DNA from: Flavobacterium sp.
GTDB lineage: Bacteria > Bacteroidota > Bacteroidia > Flavobacteriales > Flavobacteriaceae
Assembly (NCBI GenBank): GCA_020048955.1
Contig: JAIFLT010000016.1
Location: forward strand, 1 to 34,135
Direction: 5' to 3'
Length of the DNA stretch: 34,135 nucleotides
This document shows, in pieces, positions 13,366 to 16,246 of the stretch. The stretch's first letter is position 1. The number at the start of each line of letters is the position of its first letter. A program made the position numbers and the translations under genes. The notes below the pieces were generated by a model that was not told the origin of the DNA, did not search any database, and was given only the letters and a program-made list of their open reading frames with translations.

Positions 13366-13405
13366 AAATAATGCTGTATTTATATTTTACAGCATTATTT
13401 ATTTT
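13366..13405. terminator. Convergent terminator hairpin
   Basis: AAATAATGCTGTA (13366-13378) / TACAGCATTATTT (13388-13400), 13-bp stem, between a + gene and the - hip locus. Confidence 0.85.
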
Positions 13406-14421
13406 AACCCCAATTCCTTATACCTGGTTTCAAGCAAACTCATATACTTCATTTTATATTCATCGCTCACAAAACTTTTTTCTAAAACAGCAAGCATTTC
13501 GGGTTTTGCATAAACAAAAAGTTCTAAGGTATTGTCTAAAACTTTTTTGCTCAAACCACTATTCTCATAAGCGACCAAAAAATCATGGTATTTCAGTTTT
13601 CTTTTTTTTGCATTTAGCGTGAGTGCTAATTCTTCGGTATCAGCTGGGTTTACTAATGCTGTTGGTACTAAATCATAAGCTGGACACAATTGCAACCCTT
13701 GCCCTTCTTTTTCAACTAAAGAAAAGTTTTTTAAGTGCATATCACTGTTTCCTGTAAAATAACTAAACAATACTTGCTCATAAAAGTTACTTACATCTAA
13801 AAGGGGTGCACTAGAATATTTCAAAATTAATTTAGCAACTTGCTCATGACTTCCTTTGTATTTGTCTTCGGTTAATCGTTCACTCAATTGGCACATATCT
13901 TCCATATGTAGTTTTCCTTTTCGAGTTCTGTCTACTCGTTTGGTGATGTAGCAAAGGGTGTTATCTTGTAATTTTACTAAACTATGTGGTACAATATTTA
14001 TACCGCAAACGCCTGCCATGTGCATGGTGGCACTTTCAAGTTCTGGTAATTGTTCATAATGTTCTGATGGGGGCTTCAAGATATAATCACCATAAAGTCC
14101 TACTATGGTTAGTTTTTTTGTTAAATTTTTTTCTTGTTTTCTGTATAAACTTAAGGATACTTTTGCTTGAACTCCTGTAACTGCCATTTGACTTTGGATT
14201 ACTTGTGTGGCCAATTCTTTTAAATTATCTAAGCTATAAGCAAGTTGAGGGGTTTTTAATTGTCCAAAAAAACGTTTGTTGCATGCTTCATGAAAATCAG
14301 AGTCTTTACTAAAAAGAGGTTCATAACAAAATAAGCACCGTTTTCCATAGAATGTACCTTTTTCATGTACTTCCATTAAAACGTCTTTGGGTAAAAAATA
14401 TTTTTTTTTATAGTTTTTCAT
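13399..14421 (-). CDS. hipT-like: HipT-like kinase toxin (HipA core/C-terminal part)
   Basis: CLFC...HEAC N-terminal motif, TGVQAKVSL Gly-rich loop, ELESATMHMAGVCGI, YITKRVDR, GNSDMHLKNFSL catalytic loop and CPAYDLVPT. Confidence 0.87.
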   Translation of the reverse strand: MKNYKKKYFLPKDVLMEVHEKGTFYGKRCLFCYEPLFSKDSDFHEACNKRFFGQLKTPQLAYSLDNLKELATQVIQSQMAVTGVQAKVSLSLYRKQEKNLTKKLTIVGLYGDYILKPPSEHYEQLPELESATMHMAGVCGINIVPHSLVKLQDNTLCYITKRVDRTRKGKLHMEDMCQLSERLTEDKYKGSHEQVAKLILKYSSAPLLDVSNFYEQVLFSYFTGNSDMHLKNFSLVEKEGQGLQLCPAYDLVPTALVNPADTEELALTLNAKKRKLKYHDFLVAYENSGLSKKVLDNTLELFVYAKPEMLAVLEKSFVSDEYKMKYMSLLETRYKELGLK

Positions 14422-14734
14422 TCTTTGTTACGCTTATTGCTCCAATACAATCTTTGCAGCAGGTTAGGAGCAAACCCATTCTATCTTTATAATTTATTTT
14501 CCAATTTTCTTCGGCTATATCTAAAAGCCATCCTTCTGGAATTAATCCATCGAAGAAGGCAAATAATGTTTTGCTTTGGTAGGTTCTATCTGTTAATGGT
14601 AATGTTAGACTTATTGCTTCTGCATGTTCTTTTTTTAAGTAGTCTTTGTTGTATTCAAATGAGTATCCGGCGTCGGTTTCACTAACTACGCCACAAAACA
14701 TATTTTTCATATATACATTCCCACTTCTATTCAT
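14408..14734 (-). CDS. hipS-like: HipS-like protein (HipA N-terminal subdomain)
   Basis: GVVSETDAGYSFEYNKDYLKKEHAEAISLTLPLTDRTYQSKTLFAFFDGLIPEGWLL; overlaps the kinase start by 14 nt. Confidence 0.85.
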   Translation of the reverse strand: MNRSGNVYMKNMFCGVVSETDAGYSFEYNKDYLKKEHAEAISLTLPLTDRTYQSKTLFAFFDGLIPEGWLLDIAEENWKINYKDRMGLLLTCCKDCIGAISVTKNEKL

Positions 14735-14960
14735 TTTTTATCAAGTTTTCTCTATCTAAAGTTACCACTCCTAAAGTTTCTCCAAATAGTCGTAATACAT
14801 CGTTTACTTTATCCATTCGTAATGTGCTTTTTCCTTGTTCTAAATCTCGTACAAATCGTAATCCTACGCTTGCTTTTAAGGCTAGTTCTGGTTGTGTTAG
14901 CTTATTTTGTTTTCGTTTTGTTTTAACGTGAATACTAATATTATTTATTTTTTTCTTCAT
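14727..14960 (-). CDS. hipB-like: HipB-like XRE-family antitoxin/repressor
   Basis: VKTKRKQNKLTQPELALKASVGLRFVRDLEQGKSTLRMDKVNDVLRLFGETLGV, an XRE HTH; first gene of the hip operon. Confidence 0.88.
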   Translation of the reverse strand: MKKKINNISIHVKTKRKQNKLTQPELALKASVGLRFVRDLEQGKSTLRMDKVNDVLRLFGETLGVVTLDRENLIKNE

Positions 14961-14964
14961 TTTT

Positions 14965-15101
14965 ATACCTTTAAAGCTACAAATATATTATTTTTTTATT
15001 ATTTAATACCATAAATGGTATATTTTTTATTTTTATCAATATTTTATACCTTTAATAGTATAAATTTATGTTTTTAGCAATAATTATGCTATATATGGTA
15101 T
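14965..15101. promoter_or_regulatory. Four operator-like sites (ATACC-N6-GGTAT type) spaced 40-41 bp
   Basis: atacctttaaagctac (14965), ataccataaatggtat (15006), atacctttaatagtat (15046), atgctatatatggtat (15086). Confidence 0.6.
14980..14987 (-). promoter_or_regulatory. Candidate -7 element (TATATTTG) of the hip operon
   Basis: Minus-strand TAnnTTTG 20 nt upstream of the HipB-like ATG; no clear -33 TTG. Confidence 0.5.
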
Positions 15102-15112
15102 AAAATTAGAAA

Positions 15113-16246
15113 TTATTTAAAGTAAGTAGAGAGTAATTCTAACGCGGCAGAAAATGGTGTTTTCTTATTGGTAGCTACGGCTAATTTATTGTAGTCAAGT
15201 ATTTTTTTTATCTTTGGATGATTGTAAAAATTAGATTTTAATTGCTCATTTATGGTTTCCATCATCCAAAATTGATTCTGATTTTGACGTTTTTCTTCAA
15301 AATAATGATTGGATTTTACCAATTCAAAATATGCTGAAATCGTTTTCCAAACAGCATCAATTCCTTCTTTGGTATAAGAACTACAAGTTGCAGCAGTTGG
15401 AGTCCAGCCACTTTGTTTTGCAGGGAATAGATGTAATGCTCTATTGAATTCTGTTTTGGCTAATTTAGCTTTAGCAATATTATCACCATCGGCTTTATTG
15501 ATTACTATAGCATCTGCCATTTCCATGATGCCACGTTTTATTCCTTGCAATTCATCACCAGCTCCAGAAATTTTCAATAGTAAAAAGAAATCTACCATAC
15601 TATGTACAGCGGTTTCACTCTGACCAACTCCAACAGTTTCTATGATTATGGTGTCAAATCCGCAGGCTTCACATAAAATTATGGTTTCTCGTGTTTTTCT
15701 GGCAACTCCGCCAAGTGTTTCTCCTGAGGCACTAGGGCGAATAAAAGCGTTTTCATCTTTTACCAATTCTTCCATTCGGGTTTTATCTCCAAGAATACTT
15801 CCGTGAGAAATGGTACTACTTGGGTCAACTGCTAAAACGGCAACTTTTCTTCCAAGTGAAGTTAAATGCTTTCCAAAAGCTTCAATAAAAGTACTTTTTC
15901 CAACTCCTGGAACACCAGTAATTCCAATTCGTATGGATTTATTGGCATGAGGCAAACATGCTTGAATTAGGGTAGTAGCTTTTTCTAAATGTTTGGTATT
16001 GGTGCTTTCTACAAGCGTGATGGCTCTACTTAAAGCCACTTTATCTTTTGCCAAAATTCTCTCAATCAACTCTTGCGCCGAAGGTTGATTTTTTCTTTTT
16101 TGAATCACATTTTGAATTGAAACTTGATTTAAAGTTTCTGGTTGTGGTACGCCTTCTTTTTCATGAAGTGCAGAATTTTGTTTAGGTGTTTTCAAAAGGT
16201 TTCTTACTTTCTGTAAAAATACAAAAAATGTACGAATATAAAACAC
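15113..16246 (-). CDS. meaB: Methylmalonyl-CoA mutase-associated GTPase (start may be internal)
   Basis: RIGITGVPGVGKSTFIEAFG, VLAVDPSSTISHGSILGDKTRM, TIIIETVGVGQSETAVHSMVDFFLLL, IVINKADGDN. Confidence 0.93.
   Translation of the reverse strand: MFYIRTFFVFLQKVRNLLKTPKQNSALHEKEGVPQPETLNQVSIQNVIQKRKNQPSAQELIERILAKDKVALSRAITLVESTNTKHLEKATTLIQACLPHANKSIRIGITGVPGVGKSTFIEAFGKHLTSLGRKVAVLAVDPSSTISHGSILGDKTRMEELVKDENAFIRPSASGETLGGVARKTRETIILCEACGFDTIIIETVGVGQSETAVHSMVDFFLLLKISGAGDELQGIKRGIMEMADAIVINKADGDNIAKAKLAKTEFNRALHLFPAKQSGWTPTAATCSSYTKEGIDAVWKTISAYFELVKSNHYFEEKRQNQNQFWMMETINEQLKSNFYNHPKIKKILDYNKLAVATNKKTPFSAALELLSTYFK

What the first reader, a model, noticed from the sequence alone, without database searches (positions are those of the whole stretch)
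14965..15101. Four operator-like sites at 40-41-bp spacing upstream of the hip operon
Sites start at 14965, 15006, 15046 and 15086 (steps 41, 40, 40): atacctttaaagctac, ATACCATaaATGGTAT (perfect inverted repeat), atacctttaatagtat and atgctatATATGGTAT. The first overlaps the -7 element (TATATTTG, 14980-14987) and the second covers the expected -33 position. About four helical turns between sites puts all on one DNA face, consistent with cooperative binding and looping by HipB-like dimers, as for the multiple operators of E. coli hipBA.
Basis: partly seen in the sequence, partly recalled or inferred. Interest (0 to 1): 0.6.

Follow-up and report, generated by a model that had tools for sequence, protein, structure and literature searches.

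The report
Helically spaced hipBST operator array
The four mirrored DNA sites in front of this Flavobacterium toxin-antitoxin operon are real and are kept about 41 bases apart in relatives across the phylum Bacteroidota; related operons use other site sequences about 61 or 71 bases apart, which points to an ordered, multi-site self-repression switch.

Summary
Four 18-bp dyads (TATACCn6GGTATA-like) lie at 14964-14981, 15005-15022, 15045-15062 and 15085-15102, with steps of 41, 40 and 40. In the 2.93-Mb genome, the only pairs of such sites 40 or 41 bp apart are these three.

The operon is hipBST (hipB-hipS-hipT), not hipBA. Relatives across Bacteroidota keep 3-4 such sites: 131 loci, 298 steps, mean 40.7 bp, sd 0.65. 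Site arms are conserved more than linkers, and the array persists when the upstream gene differs. Site 1 abuts the -7 box and covers the predicted transcription start; site 2 covers the -33 position.

Motif and period follow HipB phylogeny and the HipT glycine-rich loop. The three periods share one helical phase (about 4, 6 and 7 turns), but three classes are few.

Best explanation: a HipB autorepression array supporting higher-order HipB(ST)-DNA complexes. Binding, cooperativity and looping are not shown. At 10.5 bp/turn the sites are not strictly on one face.

The parts
14964..14981 (.). Operator site 1 (18 bp; on the hipB strand TGTAGCTTTAAAGGTATA), just downstream of the -7 box, over the predicted transcription start, ending 3 bp before the hipB start codon
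   Evidence: 2 mismatches to TATACCn6GGTATA; conserved in relatives
15005..15022 (.). Operator site 2 (TATACCATTTATGGTATT on the hipB strand), over the expected -33 position; its 16-bp core is a perfect dyad
15045..15062 (.). Operator site 3 (TATACTATTAAAGGTATA on the hipB strand)
15085..15102 (.). Operator site 4 (TATACCATATATAGCATA on the hipB strand), the distal site; one arm is lost in several relatives
14980..14987 (-). -7 promoter box TATATTTG (flavobacterial sigma-A consensus TAnnTTTG)
   Evidence: sequence; consensus in PMC9723704; TAnnTTT conserved at this place in 131 aligned loci
14727..14960 (-). hipB: 77-aa helix-turn-helix repressor, presumed binder of the array
   Evidence: TIGR03070 74.8 bits, above its cut-off; HTH_3
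14408..14734 (-). hipS: 108-aa HipA N-terminal-domain protein (presumed antitoxin), overlaps hipB by 8 bp
   Evidence: Couple_hipA 1.9e-25
13399..14421 (-). hipT: 340-aa HipA_C kinase toxin, overlaps hipS by 14 bp; motifs GNSDMHLKNFSL and AYDLVPT kept
   Evidence: HipA_C 3e-43; PDB HipT of Legionella about 1e-48

Best explanation
The four sites are the operator array through which HipB, alone or within the HipB-HipS-HipT complex, represses its own hipBST operon. A HipB dimer binds each 18-bp dyad. Site 1 (just downstream of the -7 box, over the transcription start) and site 2 (over the -33 position) block RNA polymerase; sites 3 and 4 raise occupancy and stabilise the complex. The fixed spacing of about four helical turns lets neighbouring complexes touch or be bridged through HipS/HipT and, if each bends DNA as E. 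coli HipA-HipB does, lets the bends add up to a curved or wrapped assembly. Shown by sequence: the sites, their place on the promoter, their uniqueness in the genome, phylum-wide conservation of the spacing, and change of the motif together with the HipB clade. Inferred: binding by HipB, cooperativity, bridging or wrapping, and response to the toxin:antitoxin ratio. My confidence is about 0.9 that this is a HipB operator array and about 0.6 that the sites work together through contacts between bound complexes.
For: Only array of its kind in the genome. 164 adjacent distances of 40-42 bp in the window and 80 relatives, every other distance seen once, and no 40/41 pair in shuffles. 131 loci with chains of at least 3 sites, 298 steps, mean 40.7 bp, sd 0.65. 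In 17 in-register sequences site arms are 78-86% identical against 51-70% for linkers and 42% for the upstream flank. Kept both with and without meaB upstream. -7 box and site 1 abut in the alignment of 131 loci. Palindrome sequence changes with HipB clade while even spacing stays. Relatives: Legionella HipB binds evenly spaced hipBST operators in vitro (PMC10653801); E. coli O127 HipB represses the hipBST promoter, at lower expression when HipT or HipS+HipT are present (PMC10627512); E. coli K-12 HipB binds its operators cooperatively and HipA-HipB bends the operator by 70 degrees (PMC3376134).
Against: No binding data for this HipB. Legionella operators were described as showing possible intermediate occupancy, in contrast to E. 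coli cooperativity. At 10.5 bp/turn the four sites rotate progressively to 189 degrees. Linker 2 is fairly conserved (70%), so not all the signal is in the sites. The distal site is degenerate in several relatives.
Confidence: 0.8

Rival explanations
1. Independent sites: each dyad binds HipB on its own, without contacts between bound complexes. Several sites only raise local occupancy or titrate HipB, and the spacing is kept by promoter geometry (sites 1-2) and by descent.
For: Legionella HipB gave gel shifts compatible with intermediate occupancy (PMC10653801). Sites 1-2 alone could be fixed by the distance between -33 and -7.
Against: Steps 2-3 and 3-4, which are upstream of the promoter elements, are as tightly kept as step 1-2, although linkers 2 and 3 diverge to 70 and 51% identity. 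Other clades with other palindromes keep their own even period.
Confidence: 0.25
2. The sites are bound by another regulator (a global or stress factor), not by HipB.
For: HipB binding was not measured here; one other intergenic perfect core exists in the genome (L003).
Against: The spaced array occurs once per genome here, at hipB, it moves with hipBST into other gene contexts and onto plasmids, and its palindrome changes with the HipB clade.
Confidence: 0.05
3. Chance similarity in very AT-rich DNA.
For: Single sites of this kind are no commoner than the control in the genome.
Against: Spaced pairs are unique to this locus and conserved far above shuffled controls across the phylum.
Confidence: 0.01

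Closest known systems
Legionella pneumophila hipBST operators O1-O3 (PMC10653801)
   Same: Three-gene hipBST operon; several 18-bp inverted-repeat operators at even spacing, first one over the promoter, distal ones more variable; conserved across a genus; HipB binds them in vitro.
   Different: 53-bp gaps, i.e. a 71-bp period by my addition, against 40-41 bp here; reported three sites against four; HipT loop SVQ against AVT here. The 71-bp period matches another Bacteroidota hipBST clade found here (TTACYGn6CRGTAA).
E. coli K-12 hipBA operators O1-O4 (TATCCn8GGATA)
   Same: Four 18-bp dyads with similar outer arms upstream of a HipB-type antitoxin gene; cooperative HipB repression reported (PMC3376134).
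   Different: Uneven steps of 28, 39 and 28 bp against 41, 40, 40; two-gene operon with full-length HipA.
E. coli O127:H6 hipBST (PMC6581861, PMC10627512)
   Same: Overlapping hipB-hipS-hipT genes; HipB represses the promoter.
   Different: HipT loop SIS, here AVT; operators not described in the text read, and the Legionella motif is reported absent there. Its SIS loop is that of the 61-bp class here, which predicts such a period; not tested.

Membership tests
hipBST tripartite toxin-antitoxin system | HTH protein (HipB), separate HipA N-subdomain-1 protein (HipS) and separate HipA kinase core (HipT), in this order in one operon | tested here: met
   same order in nearly all relatives
hipBST tripartite toxin-antitoxin system | HipT resembles known HipT in sequence, with kinase catalytic motifs | tested here: met
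   best solved relatives are Legionella HipT, about 1e-48; GNSDMHLKNFSL and AYDL motifs aligned
hipBST tripartite toxin-antitoxin system | HipS, not HipB, neutralises HipT; HipB is the transcriptional repressor | not testable with these tools
   needs expression and growth assays
hipBA two-gene system | Full-length HipA with N- and C-terminal parts in one protein | tested here: not met
   Couple_hipA and HipA_C are in separate overlapping genes
HipB operator array | Several dyads of about 18 bp upstream of hipB, overlapping the promoter | tested here: met
HipB operator array | Constant spacing kept in homologues | tested here: met
HipB operator array | Specific HipB binding to each dyad | not testable with these tools
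   needs EMSA or footprinting
HipB operator array | All sites on one face of B-DNA (helical phasing) | tested here: inconclusive
   approximate at 10.2 bp/turn, not at 10.5; three period classes share one phase, but random triples do so about 4% of the time

The most novel reading that the evidence does not exclude
hipBST modules carry operator arrays whose period is a whole number of helical turns fixed per subfamily (about 4, 6 or 7 turns) and co-evolving with the HipB palindrome and the HipT loop (4-turn: mostly A/S-V-T or TVP; 6-turn: SIS; 7-turn: mostly SIQ, Legionella SVQ), because the whole B-S-T complex, not HipB alone, assembles into a periodic bridged or wrapped nucleoprotein structure with subfamily-specific geometry.
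Probability: 0.4. Interest if true: 0.72.

Novelty: new variant of a known kind. Interest (0 to 1): 0.55.

Why it matters
How HipB-type antitoxins turn the toxin:antitoxin ratio into a repression switch is open, and Legionella hipBST has been described as differing from E. coli hipBA in operator structure and possibly cooperativity. A natural series of arrays at about 41, 61 and 71 bp, each tied to a HipB/HipT subfamily and including Legionella's period, makes the question directly testable: change spacing by half or whole turns, or swap HipB/HipST between classes. Motif plus period is also a usable signature for annotating and subclassifying hipBST operons, which are common in Bacteroidota.

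Tried and rejected
Chance in AT-rich DNA: rejected. A genome-wide HipB regulon: three other perfect 16-bp cores exist, but two lie inside coding ORFs and none is paired at 40/41 bp. The hipBA reading: rejected, the toxin parts are separate genes. Strict 'same face' at 10.5 bp/turn: not supported. A strong statistical claim for helical quantisation: weakened, since with three period classes random triples do as well about 4% of the time; an earlier estimate of 0.1% with rounded means is too optimistic. A fixed-motif scan of the TATAT..ATATA clade was noisy; its 40-bp spacing rests. Bipartite hipBA examples outside the phylum (steps 26/27/27 and 40/50) and an Aliivibrio hipBST in which I saw no clear array were too few to use. 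Three further genome searches for the other clades mostly returned loci already held. Structure prediction was not used: a monomer model would not bear on spacing or cooperativity.

Full report
What is there. In the 152-bp gap between meaB (15113-16246, minus strand) and hipB (14727-14960, minus strand), four dyads start at 14965, 15006, 15046 and 15086 (16-bp cores), as stated. Widened to 18 bp they fit TATACCn6GGTATA with 2, 1, 1 and 2 mismatches. Single sites of this kind are not significant by themselves in this genome (84 against 81 control matches at one mismatch). The spacing is: pairs exactly 40 or 41 bp apart with up to 3 mismatches occur only at this locus in 2.93 Mb, and the reversed control gives none.

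The operon. The genes downstream are HipB (TIGR03070, above its cut-off), a separate HipA N-terminal-domain protein (HipS) and a separate HipA_C kinase (HipT) whose closest solved relatives are HipT structures including that of Legionella. The genes overlap by 8 and 14 bp. This is hipBST, not hipBA.

Conservation of spacing. Eighty relatives of HipB were fetched. In them and the window, adjacent sites are 40, 41 or 42 bp apart in 164 cases and every other distance occurs once; dinucleotide-shuffled upstream regions give 0.25 sites per locus and no 40/41 pair. With loci from genomes drawn across the phylum, 131 loci have chains of at least three sites: 298 steps, mean 40.7 bp, sd 0.65. Some loci from the two sources may be the same species; the tree was built on 170 distinct HipB regions. 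Relatives include Flavobacteriales, Prevotellaceae, Sphingobacterium, Cyclobacterium, Chitinophagaceae, Saprospiraceae and plasmids of Runella and Persicobacter. Four sites are typical of the Flavobacteriales; three are usual elsewhere.

Footprint. In 17 in-register Flavobacteriales sequences the site arms are 78-86% identical, linkers 51-70% and the upstream flank 42%; the middle linker, at 70%, gives the weakest contrast. The array is kept in loci with meaB upstream and in those without. The distal site has lost one arm in several meaB-linked loci.

Promoter. The -7 box TATATTTG (14980-14987) fits the flavobacterial TAnnTTTG consensus (PMC9723704). In 131 aligned loci TAnnTTT is conserved immediately upstream of site 1, and the first arm of site 1 reads TRTACC, with G or A where box and operator overlap. 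Site 1 therefore covers the expected start of transcription, and site 2 the expected -33 region (the -33/-7 distance is from general knowledge of Bacteroidota promoters).

Other clades. More distant hipBST operons of the same phylum lack this motif but have their own evenly spaced arrays: ATCACATTATAATGTGAT at 61-62 bp (12 loci, 24 of 24 steps); TGCA..TGCA at 60-61; AGTGC..GCACT at 61-62; TTACYG..CRGTAA at 69-73 (27 steps, mean 71.1); and TATAT..ATATA at 40. A search that assumes no motif agrees: 143 of 218 upstream regions beat the 99th percentile of shuffles, 122 of these are evenly spaced, and their periods are 40-42, 60-62 or 70-73 bp with one exception at 27. Many of the uneven ones are of the 40+81 kind, that is, one site skipped. 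On the HipB tree all 6- and 7-turn loci fall on one side of the midpoint split and all 4-turn loci on the other, though that fork is weakly supported and few columns were available. The HipT glycine-rich loop follows: 6-turn SIS in 10 of 10, 7-turn mostly SIQ, 4-turn mostly A/S-V-T or TVP. Legionella hipBST, with 18-bp operators and 53-bp gaps (PMC10653801), has a 71-bp period and an SVQ loop, as expected of the 7-turn class.

Helical phase. The three class means (40.7, 60.9 and 71.1 bp) share a common phase within 0.12 bp for some helical repeat between 10.2 and 10.6, but random triples do nearly as well about 4% of the time; this is suggestive only. In the window the sites lie at 0, 326, 257 and 189 degrees at 10.5 bp/turn, and at 0, 7, 339 and 311 degrees at 10.2. 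'One face' is thus approximate; a small regular rotation would suit a superhelical arrangement.

Mechanism. Most likely HipB dimers, alone or with HipS/HipT, fill the array and repress the promoter. Published work supports the ingredients in relatives: repression by E. coli O127 HipB, at lower expression levels when HipT is present (PMC10627512); binding of evenly spaced operators by Legionella HipB; cooperative binding and a 70-degree bend in E. coli hipBA (PMC3376134). For this locus, binding, cooperativity and any wrapping or bridging are inferred.

Comparison. E. coli K-12 hipBA has four operators with steps of 28, 39 and 28 bp: similar arms, different arrangement. The closest known arrangement is that of Legionella hipBST. 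I found no paper in the held library that describes hipBST operators in Bacteroidota, which does not prove that none exists. I class the finding as a new variant of a known kind.

Noticed in passing
window 13399-14421 (hipT): The glycine-rich loop reads AVTGVQ: the first phosphorylatable serine of the SIS motif is alanine and the third position threonine. Across loci the loop type tracks the operator period (SIS with 61 bp, SIQ with 71 bp, A/S-V-T or TVP with 41 bp).
   Followed up: partly
L003 1501-1516 (G000:C203:9560-9575): A perfect ATACCn6GGTAT core lies in a gap between two ORFs elsewhere in the genome, single and unpaired; a possible second HipB target.
   Followed up: partly
L313 and L314 (Persicobacter and Runella rosea plasmids): hipBST-like plasmid loci in which the 61-bp-class motif was not found at the tolerance used; the array may be lost or diverged. 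In L314 the hipS and hipT frames are also annotated shorter than usual.
   Followed up: no
L317 and L319 (Pseudosulfitobacter and Devosia plasmids): Two-gene hipBA loci outside the phylum with operator-like dyads at steps 26/27/27 and 40/50; two-gene systems may use other spacings.
   Followed up: no
L144 and L151: Four-site versions of the 61-bp array (steps 61/61/62 and 61/62/61), so four sites are not confined to the 41-bp class.
   Followed up: no
L193: Two identical perfect dyads GCGCAAAATATTGCGC 71 bp apart upstream of a HipB relative with yet another motif.
   Followed up: no
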